Positions 14,054 through 17,811 of a stretch of DNA of 18,289 bases are shown here, piece by piece. Source of the DNA: Candidatus Woesearchaeota archaeon (GTDB lineage Archaea > Nanoarchaeota > Nanoarchaeia > Woesearchaeales > CALCXY01); assembly GCA_030751555.1 (NCBI GenBank), contig JASMFX010000079.1, positions 1 to 18,289 of the forward strand, written 5' to 3'. The translations under genes and the position numbers were made by a program. Below the pieces are notes generated by a model, which saw only the letters and a program-made list of their open reading frames with translations, had not been told where the DNA came from and did no database searches. Every line of letters starts with the position of its first letter. Position 1 is the first letter of the stretch.

Positions 14054-15805
14054 ATGAAATATCATGATTTAGTTCAGGTATATGTGGAACTGGAAGCTAC
14101 GAGTAAACGGCTGGGAAAGACGCATATTATTGCTGAGTTTCTCAAAACTGTTCGGGAGGAGGACTTGGAGGTTATTGTATTGTTGTTGCAGGGAAGGGTT
14201 TTTCAGTCCTATGATGAGAGGAAGATTGGGGTTGCTGCAAGGTTGGTTTTGAAGGCGATTGCAAGTGGCTCTGGAGAGAGTGCTGCTAATGTGGAGACTA
14301 AATGGAAGAGTTTGGGAGATTTGGGAGAGGTTGGCAAGGCTTTGCTTAGCAAAAAAAAGCAGGCAACGCTCTTTAGCCAGGAATTGACTGTAAAGAAGGT
14401 ATTTACTAATCTTACTAAGTTGGCTAGCCTTGAAGGGATTGGGACTGTAAAGCATAAGACTGCTCTTATTGCTGAGCTATTGACTTCAGCGAAACCTGAT
14501 GAGGCAAAGTTTATTATTCGGACTGTTTTGGAAGAGATGAGGGTGGGAGTTGCTGATGGAACCTTGAGGGATGCTGTAACATGGGCTTATTTTGGCAAAA
14601 AATTGGATCTCCAGTATGATGCTAAGGAGATGAGTATTGATCCTAAGGATCGGGAGCTCTACAATGAGTATTTGGGTTTGGTCCAGGGAGCCTTTGATGT
14701 CAGGAATAATTTTGGGGAAGTTGCTTGGATTGCTAAGAGCAAGGGTGAAAAGGGCCTGAAAGCTGTTGGGATTAAGGTTTTTATACCGATCAAGGTCATG
14801 CTGGGTCCTAAGGAGAAGGATGTGAAGAGTGCTCTTGAGAGAGTGGGGAAGCCTTGTCAAGTGGAATTTAAGTATGATGGTTTTCGGATTGAGGCGCATA
14901 AGGATAAAGGAAGGGTTGAGTTGTATACTCGGCGTTTAGAGAAGGTAACAAAGCAATTTCCAGAAGTGGTGGAGTATGTTTCGAATAATGTAAAAGGAGA
15001 GAGTTTTATTTTAGATGCTGAGGCAGTTGGCTTTGATGCAAAGTCAGGGAAGTATCTGCCTTTTCAGAATGTTTCTCAACGGATTAAGAGGAAGTATGAT
15101 ATTGAAAAGATCGCTGCAAAGATGCCTATTGAACTCAATGTTTTTGATATTCTCTATTACAATGGGGAGAATATGATTAATGTTGAGTTTAAATCGAGGA
15201 GAGCATTGCTGGAAAAGATAGTTAAGCCTGTTAGAAAGAAGATTAGGTTAACTGAGAGCATTGTTACTTCAAGTTCAGGAGAGATTGAGAAGTTCTACAA
15301 GAAGAGTTTGGAGGCTGGTGAGGAAGGCTTGATGTTAAAGAATTTAGGAGCGCCCTACAAGCCCGGTGCAAGGGTTGGGCATATGGTGAAGTTGAAGACT
15401 ACAATGGAAACTTTTGATCTAGCAATTGTTGGTGCAGAATGGGGTGAAGGCAAGAGATCTAAGTGGTTGAGTAGTTTTACAATTGCTTGTGTTGATGGTG
15501 GTGAGTTTTTAGAGATTGGTAAGGTTGGGACAGGGATAAAAGAGAAAGCTGAAGAGGGATTGAGTTTTGATGAATTGACTCGATTACTTAAGCCTTTGAT
15601 TATTTCTGAGAAAGGTCGTGAGGTTACTGTTAAGCCTAAAGTAGTTGTTGAGTTAAATTTTGAGGAGATCCAGAAGAGTCCTTCTTATGGGAGTGGTTAT
15701 GCTTTGAGGTTTCCTCGGGTTGTGCGTTTGCGTGAGGATAAACATGTTTCTGATGTTTCTACTTTAGATATGGTTGAAGATGCTTATGATGGGCAGAGGA
15801 AGTAA
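14054..15805 (+). CDS. lig: ATP-dependent DNA ligase
   Basis: Seals nicks in replication and repair. The 583-residue length is standard for archaeal replicative ligases. The N-terminal DNA-binding domain (about 1-200, with RTVLEEMRVGVADGTLRDAV typical of it) is followed by the adenylation domain. The AMP-accepting lysine is K273 in EFKYDGFR (motif I), motif III is ILDAEAVGF (319-327), motif IV is EEGLMLKN (423-430) and motif V is MVKLKT (444-449). The OB domain ends with a Pro-x-Val-Val-x-Leu-Arg-like PRVVRLREDK. All catalytic motifs are intact. Its stop is two bases from the first tRNA-derived repeat unit of the convergent tRNA-Arg cluster. Confidence 0.97.
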   Translation: MKYHDLVQVYVELEATSKRLGKTHIIAEFLKTVREEDLEVIVLLLQGRVFQSYDERKIGVAARLVLKAIASGSGESAANVETKWKSLGDLGEVGKALLSKKKQATLFSQELTVKKVFTNLTKLASLEGIGTVKHKTALIAELLTSAKPDEAKFIIRTVLEEMRVGVADGTLRDAVTWAYFGKKLDLQYDAKEMSIDPKDRELYNEYLGLVQGAFDVRNNFGEVAWIAKSKGEKGLKAVGIKVFIPIKVMLGPKEKDVKSALERVGKPCQVEFKYDGFRIEAHKDKGRVELYTRRLEKVTKQFPEVVEYVSNNVKGESFILDAEAVGFDAKSGKYLPFQNVSQRIKRKYDIEKIAAKMPIELNVFDILYYNGENMINVEFKSRRALLEKIVKPVRKKIRLTESIVTSSSGEIEKFYKKSLEAGEEGLMLKNLGAPYKPGARVGHMVKLKTTMETFDLAIVGAEWGEGKRSKWLSSFTIACVDGGEFLEIGKVGTGIKEKAEEGLSFDELTRLLKPLIISEKGREVTVKPKVVVELNFEEIQKSPSYGSGYALRFPRVVRLREDKHVSDVSTLDMVEDAYDGQRK

Positions 15806-15807
15806 AA

Positions 15808-15896
15808 CGCCCCTGCCGGAAATCGAAACCTGGCAAATTTTTAAGAAAAATTTGGTAAAAACACCGGAAGTATAAGGAGGCCTAAAGCCTCCTGAA
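15808..15896 (-). repeat. tRNA-3'-end-derived repeat unit 1
   Basis: Third and last unit downstream of tRNA-Arg. On the minus strand it begins with a hairpin (AGGAGGC with GCCTCCT), then TATACT, then a second hairpin with a 9-bp stem CAAATTTTT, and ends in a decayed T-arm plus CAGGGGCG, a copy of the tRNA acceptor 3' strand. The T-stem pairing is poor here, so it is the most degenerate unit. Its second hairpin stem is identical to that of unit 3. Confidence 0.6.
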
Positions 15897-16000
15897 CGCC
15901 CCTGCCGAGAACTAGAACTCAGGCTATCCTTTAAAAAAGGATAGGGCCCAAACACCGCGAGTATATTGAGGGGTCTCGAAAAAAACTCGACCCCTCATAA
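15897..16000 (-). repeat. tRNA-3'-end-derived repeat unit 2
   Basis: Middle unit. Minus strand order: 9-bp hairpin (TGAGGGGTC with GACCCCTCA), ATATACT, a second 9-bp hairpin (CTATCCTTT with AAAGGATAG), then a T-arm-like CTGAG/CTCGG stem and CAGGGGCG. Same layout as the neighbours, but the second hairpin has different bases, so the structure rather than the sequence is kept. Confidence 0.6.
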
Positions 16001-16101
16001 CGCCCCTGCGAAGAATTGAACTCCGGCAAATTTTTGCCGTTAAAAATTTGATAAAAAGCGAAGAGTATAGAGGGATCCTCACTACGCTCAGATCCCTCGA
16101 A
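16001..16101 (-). repeat. tRNA-3'-end-derived repeat unit 3
   Basis: First unit after tRNA-Arg. Minus strand order: 8-bp hairpin (16070-16077 with 16091-16098) whose loop contains TGAGCGTAGTGA, then TATACT, a 9-bp hairpin CAAATTTTT with loop AACGGC, then a complete T-arm (CGGAG, loop TTCAATT, CTTCG) and CAGGGGCG. It has no D-arm, anticodon arm or 5' acceptor strand, so it cannot be a whole tRNA. Confidence 0.65.
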
Positions 16102-16173
16102 CGCCCCTGCCGAGAATTGAACTCGGGTCATGAAGTCCGCAACCTCACGTACTATCCACTATACTACAGGGGC
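16102..16173 (-). tRNA. tRNA-Arg (anticodon GCG)
   Basis: A 72-nt intronless cloverleaf. The acceptor is GCCCCTG with CAGGGGC and discriminator G. The D-arm lies between TA and G26. The anticodon stem TGAGG/CTTCA (one G-U) holds the loop TTGCGGA, giving anticodon GCG for CGC and CGT codons. The T-arm is CCGAG, TTCAATT, CTCGG. CCA is not encoded. The acceptor stem is identical to that of tRNA-Asn at 17660-17787. A TATA box is centred about 29 bases upstream. Confidence 0.93.
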
Positions 16174-16206: not shown

Positions 16207-17301
16207 TTAACTTACTTTTAGTTTGCAGCATTTGATGCGGTTTATATGGCCAAACGTTTGAGATGCGCCAGGATCATATATGCCCACTAAAACCTTGTTT
16301 GATGGGCATTGTGCTTTCCAAGTATCTCCTGCTCCGTGTGGGCCTCCTGCTTGGTTAAGGATCTCTTTTGAAGTGCATGCATTATAATCTACTGTAACTG
16401 AGAGGCCTTTTACAGGTGCATTTAGGTGGATTTCTTTTCCATCTAAGATAAGATCATGTTTTTCTGAAGCAGGAGCTGTGCTTGAAGAGGTTGCAGCGAT
16501 TTTTAACCATTGGCCTCTATCAGCAGATGGCCCAGATCTTATGTTTTTTGCATAGATGTAGCCAACATATTTATTATTATGGTAAAAGCGTTGTTGGGCA
16601 AAGTTATCTCCAGAGCCTTCAACACGAATAATTTCATTATCTTCTGATCCTCCTTTTAGATGCAATAGAGACTTAATTATTATTATTTTCCCATCTAAAA
16701 CCAAGTCATACTCAGTTCCTCCAGTAGGATGTTTAGCACCTATTTTGAATATTTTATCACCACCTGAGATGTGTTTAGCGTAAATATAGCCTACATAGTT
16801 TCCATCGTGATAAAATCTTTGTTGGGTGAAGTCTGGACCAGAGCCCTCCACACGAACAATTTCATTATCTCCTAATCCTCCTTTGACGTGGAGGGGGGCG
16901 AGTGGTTGAGGTACGTCGATGCCAATCTTAGCTTCTTTGTCGAAGTATATTTTTTTACCTGATTTACCGTCAAATTCTAGATGATCTGGGCTATTCTTGG
17001 CGTTTATCTTCCATTTAGGCCCTATATTCATACCCATTCCTGTGGTATGATCGGCATAGATCTCCACTATGTCATTGAGACTTTGAACTTTCATCCTTTG
17101 AAGTCCAGAACCGTAGACATGTAATGGCGTTCCTAGATCTGGACAAGTAGTTCCAATGCAGAAAGCTTCTGCAGTAATAGTAGCACCAGCAAAATCAATA
17201 TCATCTGCAAGATGGCCTTGATCCACTGTAGCAATAACTACAGCAGCAATGAGCATAAATAAGAGAGTGAAGAAACCGTATTTGTATAGCTCTTTTTTCA
17301 T
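16207..17301 (-). CDS. Predicted secreted or membrane-anchored repeat protein
   Basis: A 364-residue cell-surface candidate. Residues 1-8 are basic and 9-26 hydrophobic (FFTLLFMLIAAVVIATV), a signal or anchor. Two tandem repeats of about 70-78 residues follow at 136-205 and 212-289; both run PLHVKGG/LLHLKGG, D-N-E-I-V/I-R-V-E-G-S-G, QQRFYH, YVGYIYAK and end D-L-V/I-L-D-G-K. An earlier PLHVYGSG at 59-66 may be a worn third copy. The C-terminal part has four cysteines (309, 332, 358, 359) around CPSNKVLVGIYDP, which looks like a small disulfide-bonded domain. PLHV-type repeats occur in tail-fibre-like and adhesin-like beta proteins, so a role in contact with a host or partner cell is possible but inferred. 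A TATA box is centred 27 bases upstream. Confidence 0.82.
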   Translation of the reverse strand: MKKELYKYGFFTLLFMLIAAVVIATVDQGHLADDIDFAGATITAEAFCIGTTCPDLGTPLHVYGSGLQRMKVQSLNDIVEIYADHTTGMGMNIGPKWKINAKNSPDHLEFDGKSGKKIYFDKEAKIGIDVPQPLAPLHVKGGLGDNEIVRVEGSGPDFTQQRFYHDGNYVGYIYAKHISGGDKIFKIGAKHPTGGTEYDLVLDGKIIIIKSLLHLKGGSEDNEIIRVEGSGDNFAQQRFYHNNKYVGYIYAKNIRSGPSADRGQWLKIAATSSSTAPASEKHDLILDGKEIHLNAPVKGLSVTVDYNACTSKEILNQAGGPHGAGDTWKAQCPSNKVLVGIYDPGASQTFGHINRIKCCKLKVS

Positions 17302-17375: not shown

Positions 17376-17458
17376 TGGGTCTGCGCTAAGCAAATACGCT
17401 TAGAAGGTATCGGCCAATATTCGCTACGCTCATATTGACCTGCAAAAAAAGAAAAAAA
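17376..17458 (-). repeat. tRNA-3'-end-derived repeat unit after tRNA-Ile
   Basis: Minus strand order: T-run, a 9-bp hairpin (17412-17420 with 17432-17440, one G-U) with loop GAGCGTAGCGA, then a 6-bp hairpin CTAAGC/GCTTAG, then CGCAGACCCA followed by T7-C-T8 at 17360-17375. The tRNA-Ile 3' end CGCGGGCCCA is followed by T7-C-T7 (17444-17458). The unit therefore duplicates both the tRNA end and its terminator in worn form. Confidence 0.6.
17444..17458 (-). terminator. T-tract terminator after tRNA-Ile
   Basis: T7-C-T7 on the minus strand directly follows the discriminator base of tRNA-Ile. A nearly identical T7-C-T8 tract lies at 17360-17375 after the degenerate copy. Confidence 0.6.
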
Positions 17459-17564
17459 TGGGCCCGCGGAGATTCGAACTCCGGACCACTCGATTATCAG
17501 TCGAGCATTATAATTGCCCTTTCCCAACATCAGTTGGGGAGTAGCCAGACTAAACTACGGGCCC
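17459..17564 (-). tRNA. tRNA-Ile (anticodon GAT) with a D-arm intron
   Basis: The gene spans 106 nt. The acceptor is GGGCCCG with CGGGCCC and discriminator A. The anticodon stem CTCGA/TCGAG holds CTGATAA, anticodon GAT. The T-arm is CGGAG, TTCGAAT, CTCCG. The D-arm starts GTTTAGTCTGGCTA and is then interrupted by about 31 nt (17511-17541) that contain a hairpin CCCAAC/GTTGGG. Without them the tRNA would be 75 nt with a weak D-stem (GTTT with TAAT). The junction can slide by two bases, and I could not build a strict bulge-helix-bulge there, so the exact boundaries are open. The TATA box (17588-17597) lies about 29 bases upstream, inside a repeat unit. Confidence 0.85.
17511..17541 (-). other. 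Probable intron in tRNA-Ile, D-arm (about position 21/22)
   Basis: The 31 extra nt fall between the end of a normal D-loop (AGTCTGGCTA) and the bases TAATG that precede the anticodon stem. A six-pair hairpin with loop TGAT lies in the middle. No strict bulge-helix-bulge pairing was found in the three possible registers, so this may be a relaxed motif or two short introns. Confidence 0.5.
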
Positions 17565-17577
17565 ATGAATGAAAAAA

Positions 17578-17659
17578 CGCCCCTGAGCATATAAAAGATC
17601 AAGGATCTTTTAAAGCTCAGGTTCGTCCTCGGAATCTCGCATTCGCTCGATCCCTCTTA
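17578..17659 (-). repeat. tRNA-3'-end-derived repeat unit after tRNA-Asn
   Basis: Minus strand order: a hairpin GGGATC with GATTCC (one G-U) and loop GAGCGAATGCGA, then a long two-step hairpin: CCTGAGC pairs with GCTCAGG, and inside it AAAAGATC pairs with GATCTTTT. It ends GCTCAGGGGCG then T6, copying the last bases of tRNA-Asn (TGCTCAGGGGCG). The inner arm also holds the TATA box of tRNA-Ile, so the unit both ends one tRNA and starts the next. Confidence 0.6.
17588..17597 (-). promoter_or_regulatory. TATA box of tRNA-Ile, inside a repeat unit
   Basis: CTTTTATATG on the minus strand, centred 28-29 bases from the tRNA-Ile 5' end, the same spacing as for the other two tRNA genes. Confidence 0.55.
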
Positions 17660-17679
17660 CGCCCCTGAGCAGACTCGAA

Positions 17680-17702
17680 TTCAGCAACAGTTTATACTGT
17701 TT
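17680..17702 (-). other. tRNA-Asn intron 3 (T-arm, position 53/54), 23 nt
   Basis: RNA order: CAGC, bulge AGA, AACAG, loop TATAAA, CTGTT, GCTG, bulge AAT. CAGC pairs with GCTG as the four-pair central helix, and AACAG with CTGTT as the intron helix. Cutting after AG and after AA leaves T-stem AGCAG joined to loop TTCGAGT, as needed. Confidence 0.85.
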
Positions 17703-17718
17703 CTGCTGACCTTGTGGT

Positions 17719-17730
17719 AGCTGTAAGCTT
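17719..17730 (-). other. tRNA-Asn intron 2 (anticodon loop, position 37/38), 12 nt
   Basis: CTGT pairs with ACAG as the central helix next to the anticodon stem, with the 3' bulge CTA and a loop that starts TAA on the 5' side. This is a relaxed motif because the intron is too short for a third helix. Removal leaves the seven-base loop CTGTTAA. Confidence 0.8.
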
Positions 17731-17752
17731 TAACAGCCACACGCTCTACCTA

Positions 17753-17772
17753 TTGCTCCACGCAAGGCGTGT
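17753..17772 (-). other. tRNA-Asn intron 1 (D-loop, position 15/16), 20 nt
   Basis: RNA order: GCTT, bulge AGA, CACGC, loop CTT, GCGTG, GAGC, bulge AAT. The D-stem strand GCTT pairs with an intron-borne GAGC that imitates the true D-stem partner. Cutting after AG and AA yields D-loop AGTAGGTA. Confidence 0.85.
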
Positions 17773-17811
17773 CTAAGCTACAGGGGCATAGTAGTGAGGG
17801 TTAAAAAACGG

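What the first reader, a model, noticed from the sequence alone, without database searches (positions are those of the whole stretch)
17660..17787. A tRNA-Asn gene split by three tiny introns, two with matching architecture
The minus strand carries tRNA-Asn(GTT) with inserts of 20, 12 and 23 nt in the D-loop, anticodon loop and T-arm. The D and T inserts have the same design: four-base exon strand, bulge AGA, five-pair helix, short loop, four-base intron strand imitating the stem partner, bulge AAT. The bulge sequences are identical in both. Cuts after the second base of each bulge give exactly the 73-nt cloverleaf. Multi-intron tRNAs are known from Thermoproteales; three in a gene from a lineage that looks like DPANN would be unusual, and the shared design suggests one intron type spreading between positions.
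Basis: partly seen in the sequence, partly recalled or inferred. Interest (0 to 1): 0.85.

Follow-up and report, generated by a model that had tools for sequence, protein, structure and literature searches.

The report
Three-intron asparagine tRNA in Woesearchaeota
This archaeal gene for an asparagine tRNA is interrupted by three tiny introns that relatives share one or two at a time; the introns look real, and they matter because related genomes seem to cut such introns with a simpler enzyme than the textbook rule allows.

Summary
Window 17787-17660 (minus) is tRNA-Asn(GUU) with inserts of 20, 12 and 23 nt at 15/16, 37/38 and 53/54; without them an exact 73-nt cloverleaf remains. The source is a Woesearchaeales-type DPANN archaeon. 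Five other Woesearchaeal tRNA-Asn genes carry the 15/16 intron and two the 53/54 intron, with the same cut sites and covarying helices. Of 78 tRNA-Asn rows examined (a chosen sample) only this one holds all three. All three motifs are relaxed bulge-helix-bulge types.

One intron type spreading between positions is not supported: the two introns have different carriers, no likeness beyond three bulge letters, and A/AA bulges are common in this lineage.

Three-intron tRNAs, position 53/54 and multi-intron DPANN tRNAs were known; six searches of an open-access library listed no account for Woesearchaeota. Most interesting is the enzyme. A relative held as one 1.0-Mb contig has one detectable tRNA-Asn gene (with the relaxed 53/54 intron) and one detectable splicing endonuclease gene, a lone alpha subunit without the loop held necessary for relaxed introns. 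That conflicts with the published alpha4-is-narrow rule and is testable. The window's own genome is not held, so its enzyme is unknown.

The parts
17660..17787 (-). tRNA-Asn(GUU) gene, 128 nt with three introns, mature form 73 nt
17753..17772 (-). intron 1, 20 nt, position 15/16 (D loop); central helix GCTT/GAGC, bulges AG^A and AA^T, inner helix CACGC/GCGTG; no outer helix (relaxed HBh'/BHL)
   Evidence: same-site introns in L218/G207, L234/G213, L241/G121, L242/G021, L251/G084; inner helix 30 of 30 pairs
17719..17730 (-). intron 2, 12 nt, canonical position 37/38; central helix CTGT/ACAG, bulges TA^A and CT^A, outer helix = anticodon stem, no inner helix (relaxed hBH)
   Evidence: 45 of 78 Asn rows carry an insert here
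17680..17702 (-). intron 3, 23 nt, position 53/54 (T arm); central helix CAGC/GCTG, bulges AG^A and AA^T, inner helix AACAG/CTGTT; no outer helix (relaxed)
   Evidence: same-site introns in G039 (L104) and G077 (L112) with compensatory changes in the helix and in the exon-intron pair at base 49
17732..17734 (-). anticodon GTT
17459..17564 (-). neighbouring tRNA-Ile(GAT) gene, 106 nt, also interrupted
   Evidence: (49.5 bits end to end); RF00005 finds only its 3' part
17514..17544 (-). predicted 31-nt D-loop intron of tRNA-Ile, bulges GGC / AAT, central helix GTCT/GGGC (two G-U pairs); other registers exist
   Evidence: a D-loop intron in the tRNA-Ile of G007 (L182) has an AAT 3' bulge too
16102..16173 (-). 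tRNA-Arg(GCG), uninterrupted

Best explanation
It is a functional tRNA-Asn(GUU) gene of a Woesearchaeales-type archaeon, interrupted by three short archaeal (EndA-type) introns. Mechanism: the whole gene is transcribed; each insert pairs locally with the exon strand just upstream (the intron strand standing in for the D-stem, anticodon-loop or T-stem partner) to make a relaxed bulge-helix-bulge motif; the tRNA splicing endonuclease cuts after the second base of each bulge and RtcB joins the exons to a 73-nt tRNA. Shown here: the sequence, the exact cloverleaf after removal, conserved intron sites and covarying helices in relatives, one endonuclease gene and RtcB in two relatives' genomes. Inferred: transcription, the cuts themselves, their order, and that this organism's endonuclease resembles its relatives' single-alpha-subunit enzyme.
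For: Exact 73-nt cloverleaf after removal and ARAGORN Asn(gtt) on the spliced form only. The 15/16 intron lies at the same site in 5 other genomes with bulges AGA / AA[TC] and central helix GCTT/GAGC; its inner helix is 30 of 30 paired across 6 genes, and partners re-dealt among genes reach that in 0.11% of 20,000 shuffles. The 53/54 intron lies in 2 other genomes with covarying helix (AACAG/CTGTT, AACGG/CCGTT, AACGA/TCGTT; 15 of 15 paired, but shuffles reach this in 17%, 3 genes only) and a matched exon-intron change at base 49. Exons match those of G039 at 72 of 73 positions while introns differ. In G077 (one 1,000,545-bp contig plus small ones; completeness not given) the only tRNA-Asn(GTT) found carries the 53/54 intron, so it has to be spliced if no other copy was missed. 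Endonuclease and RtcB genes are present in G077 and G039.
Against: No RNA data. The window's genome is not held, so a second intronless tRNA-Asn or its endonuclease could not be looked for. The T-arm pairing has an alternative register, which the lowest-energy fold prefers; that fold shows neither the D motif nor the bulged anticodon motif. At 37/38 the central helix is imperfect in most relatives (4 of 4 pairs in 9 of 43 rows, 3 in 25, 2 in 8, 1 in 1).
Confidence: 0.93

Rival explanations
1. Intron transposition: the D and T introns are copies of one another (or of one mobile intron type) that moved between positions, as proposed for Thermoproteales.
For: Same three intron bulge letters (A...AA), similar size and design; large-scale transposition is on record for Thermoproteales (Fujishima 2010, as cited in PMC4033280 and PMC4090602, passages).
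Against: No sequence likeness outside the bulges (by eye); among the rows examined the two introns share no carrier but this gene; A and AA at these places are common also in 37/38 introns (A 20 of 43, AA 22 of 43); the intron's helix strand must mimic a stem partner at any site, so the shared design follows from EndA's substrate.
Confidence: 0.06
2. The gene is a pseudogene or the inserts stay in the RNA as enlarged loops; another tRNA-Asn does the work.
For: The genome is not held, so a second copy cannot be excluded.
Against: Exons 72 of 73 identical to G039's gene; intron sites and helices conserved in relatives; an insert between 53 and 54 would break the T loop; in G077 the one tRNA-Asn(GTT) found carries this intron.
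Confidence: 0.03
3. On the enzyme: the introns are cut not by an alpha4 homotetramer but by a heteromer whose second subunit is too diverged for my searches, or with a helper protein.
For: Closest solved relative of the Woesearchaeal subunit is the alpha subunit of the (alpha-beta)2 enzyme of N. equitans (3iey_A). All 20 subunits carry W fourth from the end, as do the alpha subunits of A. pernix and N. equitans; M. jannaschii alpha has Y (alignments). The profile listed no A. pernix chain besides alpha, so a beta of that kind could be missed.
Against: The profile recovers the N. equitans beta NEQ261 (E 1e-15) and weakly P. aerophilum PAE0789, taken to be its beta (16.4 bits), yet in G077 the best second hit of 7243 ORFs has 9.2 bits and looks unrelated; PF01974 and PF02778 each hit above cut-off once per genome in 20 of 20 genomes.
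Confidence: 0.3

Closest known systems
Multi-intron tRNAs of Thermoproteales (for example P. calidifontis tRNA-Glu(UUC), P. islandicum tRNA-Pro(UGG), three introns each; PMC4390854, passages)
   Same: Three short BHB-type introns in one tRNA, canonical plus non-canonical positions
   Different: Other phylum, other tRNA; crenarchaeal enzymes are (alpha-beta)2 with the Crenarchaea-specific loop, which the relatives here lack; no sign of intron transposition here
ARMAN-1/2 (Micrarchaeota) and Nanoarchaeum equitans disrupted tRNAs (PMC4033280, passages and section 8)
   Same: DPANN archaea with multiple and non-canonical tRNA introns
   Different: Enzymes there are epsilon2 (with ASL) or (alpha-beta)2; in Woesearchaeal relatives only a single alpha gene was found
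tRNA-Ile(GAT) of the nearest relative G039
   Same: Readable as three introns in one tRNA in the same order of archaea
   Different: Positions 30/31, 37/38 and 45/46; supported only by exact exon matches to a mature form that I supplied and by BHB pairing (4, 3 and 4 of 4 pairs); no orthologue comparison was made
tRNA-Asn of G084 (L251) and G079 (L257)
   Same: Two of the three sites filled: D loop plus 37/38
   Different: No T-arm intron; G079's D intron is at 20/21, not 15/16

Membership tests
Archaeal EndA-type (BHB) tRNA introns | About 4-bp helix between exon strand and intron strand flanked by 3-nt bulges, cut after the second bulge base, giving the mature tRNA | tested here: met
   4 of 4 pairs at all three introns; exact 73-nt cloverleaf
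Archaeal EndA-type (BHB) tRNA introns | Motif kept in relatives by compensatory change | tested here: met
   15/16: 30 of 30 pairs in 6 genes, shuffles reach it in 0.11%. 53/54: 15 of 15 in 3 genes, but shuffles reach it in 17%, so inconclusive on its own
Archaeal EndA-type (BHB) tRNA introns | Excised in vivo | not testable with these tools
   no RNA data
Strict hBHBh' motif | Both outer (exon) and inner (intron) helices next to the bulges | tested here: not met
   by inspection: 15/16 and 53/54 lack the outer helix; 37/38 lacks the inner helix (8-nt loop)
Relaxed motifs (HBh', hBH, BHL) | One of the two flanking helices missing | tested here: met
   same inspection; names from PMC6379350 Figure 1 legend, detail of the definition partly recalled
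Multi-intron tRNA genes | Two or more introns in one tRNA gene | tested here: met
   three
Transposed introns of Thermoproteales type | Near-identical intron sequences at different sites or tRNAs | tested here: inconclusive
   the D and T introns of this gene are unlike outside the bulges, but the window's genome could not be searched for copies
alpha4-type EndA (relatives, not the window) | Single gene with N and C domains of about 180 aa, no partner subunit | tested here: met
   one gene above cut-off in 20 of 20 genomes, both domains in one open frame; earlier set: 12 of 15 genomes with a match, one of them with two, three with none
alpha4-type EndA (relatives, not the window) | Homotetramer | not testable with these tools
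   no assembly was modelled or measured
Broad-specificity EndA with CSL (relatives) | Insertion carrying the RNA-binding lysine (K44-P45-R46 in A. pernix) | tested here: not met
   the aligned G077 subunit has a 9-residue gap where A. pernix has this loop; no long insertion there in the 20 subunits read by eye (19 of them listed)
epsilon2 EndA with ASL (relatives) | Three-unit protein of about 390 aa with the ARMAN-specific loop | tested here: not met
   open frames of 175-258 aa, one PF01974 match each above cut-off; the ASL was judged by the same loop position only, not by an alignment shown to 4fz2
Group I introns | Catalytic core, length far over 100 nt (recalled) | tested here: not met
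   inserts are 12-23 nt; no group I family hit in the window

The most novel reading that the evidence does not exclude
Woesearchaeota remove relaxed, non-canonical tRNA introns with a splicing endonuclease made of one alpha subunit only, without CSL or ASL. That breaks the rule that alpha4 enzymes cut only canonical BHB and that an added loop or beta subunit is required; the Trp fourth from the C-terminus, shared with (alpha-beta)2 alpha subunits, may be part of the substitute.
Probability: 0.5. Interest if true: 0.68.

Novelty: new member of a known kind. Interest (0 to 1): 0.52.

Why it matters
ARAGORN and Rfam both missed this gene (tRNAscan-SE 2.0, which has BHB models, was not run), so DPANN genomes may look as if they lack essential tRNAs. 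More broadly, the accepted co-evolution of intron types with endonuclease architecture rests on few tested enzymes; a Woesearchaeal genome whose only detected tRNA-Asn needs a relaxed intron removed, yet with a single detected loop-less alpha endonuclease gene, makes that rule directly testable with one purified protein and one RNA. The gene also offers separate gain and loss histories for three intron sites.

Tried and rejected
Global folding of the precursor as a test: the MFE does not show the D motif, closes the anticodon region as a plain 8-bp stem, and takes the shifted register in the T arm; set aside in favour of comparative evidence. R1 with filters off split the gene; with default filters it was found whole. 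A loose tRNA-Asn scan of the main G077 contig gave 624 chance hits; a stricter one gave the known gene plus one weak, G-U-rich candidate listed twice, judged chance. Rfam below its cut-offs gave only weak matches besides the two tRNAs. Papers: six searches on tRNA introns with DPANN, Woesearchaeota or Nanoarchaeota; among the rows listed (capped at 15 or 20) none is an account of Woesearchaeal BHB tRNA introns, and the only paper holding 'Woesearchaeota', 'tRNA genes' and 'introns' together is on group I introns (PMC6125680, listing only). The library lacks most subscription papers; Sugahara 2008 is not held. No structure prediction was completed.

Full report
Observation. The minus strand 17787-17660 reads as tRNA-Asn(GUU) with inserts of 20, 12 and 23 nt. 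Taking them out leaves 73 nt in exact standard numbering: acceptor GCCCCTG/CAGGGGC, D stem GCTT/GAGC, anticodon loop CTGTTAA, T arm AGCAG-TTCGAGT-CTGCT, discriminator G. The inserts lie at 15/16, 37/38 and 53/54. ARAGORN reports one tRNA in the window, an Arg; Rfam reports the Arg and the 3' part of a tRNA-Ile; neither sees the Asn gene. ARAGORN calls the spliced letters tRNA-Asn(gtt) and finds nothing in the unspliced ones. A model built from the spliced form (R1) finds the interrupted gene end to end at 56.3 bits and the adjoining tRNA-Ile(GAT), itself with a D-loop insert, at 49.5 bits.

Where it comes from. FtsZ (1645-2757) matches Woesearchaeota and Nanoarchaeota MAGs, best 79% to Woesearchaeota isolate Bin_534 (best 80 loci kept). 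DNA ligase (14054-15802) is 73% identical to that of G039, the best of 287 genomes searched in the order of that MAG, 273 with a match. The window's own genome is not held.

Comparative test. R1 over 287 genomes of the order gave matches in 278 at E up to 1e-7 (about 150 rows listed). From the listed rows I fetched mainly long (intron-bearing) hits, so what follows is no frequency. Over 78 sources R1 gave 105 matches. After two tRNA-Ile rows with gapped anticodons were dropped, 78 rows were classed as Asn (L206 and L263 are the same gene, so 77 genes): 41 with a 37/38 insert only, 24 with none, 7 D only, 2 T only, 2 D plus 37/38, 1 37/38 plus T, and 1 with all three, the window.

Intron 15/16. 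Present in the window, G207, G213, G121, G021 and G084 (6 of the 10 rows with a D insert; the other 4 fit 20/21), always with bulge AGA, central helix GCTT/GAGC and 3' bulge AAT (AAC in G207). Length runs from 20 to 38 nt. The five-pair inner helix is complete in all six (30 of 30) although the letters differ; dealing the 3' strands anew among genes reaches 30 in 0.11% of 20,000 shuffles.

Intron 53/54. Present in the window, G039 and G077, bulges AGA/AAT in all three. The helix changes in step (AACAG/CTGTT; AACGG/CCGTT; AACGA/TCGTT), and where G077 has G at exon base 49 its intron strand changes with it (CGGC/GTCG). With three genes the shuffle test is weak (17% reach it). A second pairing register, one base over, exists in all three, would leave a loop two bases longer, and is the one in the lowest-energy fold of the window's precursor; only RNA can settle that. 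Apart from the introns, the window and G039 genes agree at 72 of 73 positions. The fourth row with a T insert (G060, L243) has it at another T-loop site.

Intron 37/38. The canonical site; 45 of 78 rows have an insert there. In 43 rows with a readable anticodon (2 dropped) the intron begins with A in 20 and ends with AA in 22, so the A...AA bulge letters shared by the D and T introns are a habit of the lineage rather than a mark of common descent. The central helix in these 43 rows is often imperfect: 4 of 4 pairs in 9, 3 in 25, 2 in 8, 1 in 1; the window has 4. The separate carriers of the D and T introns also speak against one intron spreading within the gene.

Motif class. By inspection, 15/16 and 53/54 have a central helix and an inner helix but no outer helix; 37/38 has the outer anticodon stem but an 8-nt terminal loop in place of an inner helix. 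All three are relaxed in the sense of PMC6379350 (Figure 1 legend, section 4).

The enzyme. PMC4033280 (section 8) says that alpha4 and alpha2 enzymes of Euryarchaeota cut only canonical BHB. PMC8707768 (introduction passages) says that homotetramers alone cannot cut BHL-like motifs but homodimers can, so the sources differ on alpha2. CSL or ASL loops are said to confer breadth (PMC6379350 section 6; PMC12397907 sections 12, 14, 15 and 16). The rule may already have an exception: the table in PMC4033280 (passage) lists Methanothermobacter thermautotrophicus among species with multi-intron tRNAs, and I recall its enzyme as alpha4 (not checked). In Woesearchaeal relatives PF01974 and PF02778 hit above cut-off once each, in one open frame, in 20 of 20 genomes. 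In an earlier set 12 of 15 genomes had a match, one of them (G004) two; the other three had none. In the main G077 contig a profile of the 20 subunits finds one gene among 7243 ORFs (E 9e-99), the next at 9.2 bits and unrelated by eye. A nine-sequence profile (A6; 9 of the 20) recovers the N. equitans beta NEQ261 at E 1e-15 and P. aerophilum PAE0789, taken to be its beta, at 16.4 bits, but lists no A. pernix chain besides alpha, so a beta of the last kind could be missed. The alignment to A. pernix alpha shows a 9-residue gap in the G077 subunit where A. pernix has the CSL, K44-P45-R46 included; none of the 20 subunits read has a long insertion there (by eye; 19 of them). All 20 end in W-x-[RK]-P, as do the alpha subunits of A. 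pernix and N. equitans (WFRP, WKKP), where M. jannaschii has YVKP; the Arg-plus-Trp pair is said to mark (alpha-beta)2 and epsilon2 enzymes, though the Trp site is called variable.

Why G077 matters. It is held as one contig of 1,000,545 bp in a genome listed as 1.0 Mb, with small further contigs; completeness is not given, and the contig ends do not overlap. One tRNA-Asn(GTT) was found by R1 in the whole genome and in the main contig, and by a pattern scan of the main contig that allows introns (one further weak, chance-like candidate). This gene has the relaxed 53/54 intron, so unless another copy was missed the intron must come out for the cell to have this tRNA. One endonuclease gene and one RtcB gene were found. 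So a single loop-less alpha subunit seems to be the enzyme. That is inference: no protein was tested, and a hidden partner remains possible.

Second case nearby. The nearest relative found, G039, has tRNA-Ile(GAT) after tRNA-Asn, as in the window; its letters fit three introns (21, 45 and 26 nt at 30/31, 37/38 and 45/46) with exact exon matches and 4, 3 and 4 of 4 central pairs. I supplied the expected mature form there, so this is a reading, not a blind prediction.

Conclusion. The finding is real and belongs to a known kind, multi-intron tRNAs with relaxed motifs. It is new as a documented case in Woesearchaeota as far as six searches of an open-access library show (capped listings). Its larger interest is the mismatch with the endonuclease rule.

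Noticed in passing
window 15808-16101 (after tRNA-Arg), 17578-17589 (after tRNA-Asn), about 17376-17380 (after tRNA-Ile), minus strand: Extra copies of each tRNA's own 3' end lie downstream of it: three after Arg by eye (two of them within one mismatch of the last 12 nt), one exact after Asn, a short one after Ile. The copies are preceded by hairpins, several A/T-rich (like CAAATTTTT..AAAAATTTG). Across 105 tRNA rows, 9 (two of them from the window) have a copy of their last 12 nt (at most 1 mismatch) within 400 nt downstream and 0 upstream. In L193, L213 and L244 the direct repeat runs on past the tRNA end (by eye), as at an integration site. Small site-specific cassettes, tandem duplications or structured trailers are all open; no literature search was made on this.
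   Followed up: partly
L262 (G099 tRNA-Asn downstream), L104 (G039): In some of these units the 5' arm of the hairpin is complementary to the copied tRNA 3' end, so it could also pair with the tRNA's own acceptor strand (read).
   Followed up: no
G077:C1 193076-193148 (Gln) and 616055-616146 (Arg CCT): 2 of 29 tRNA predictions in the main G077 contig also have a one-mismatch copy of their last 12 nt 76-79 nt downstream; none of the 29 has one upstream.
   Followed up: no
G039:C87 17951-20749: RtcB profile matched in two pieces about 1.5 kb apart inside one 987-aa open frame: probably an intein in RtcB.
   Followed up: no
L188 1631-1764 (G168 tRNA-Ile): tRNA-Ile with both a long D-loop insert and a T-loop insert: another likely multi-intron tRNA.
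   Followed up: no
window 16207-17301, minus: 364-aa ORF between tRNA-Ile and tRNA-Arg with a signal-like start and two similar internal blocks (GG..DNEI.RVEGSG..F.QQRFYH).
   Followed up: no
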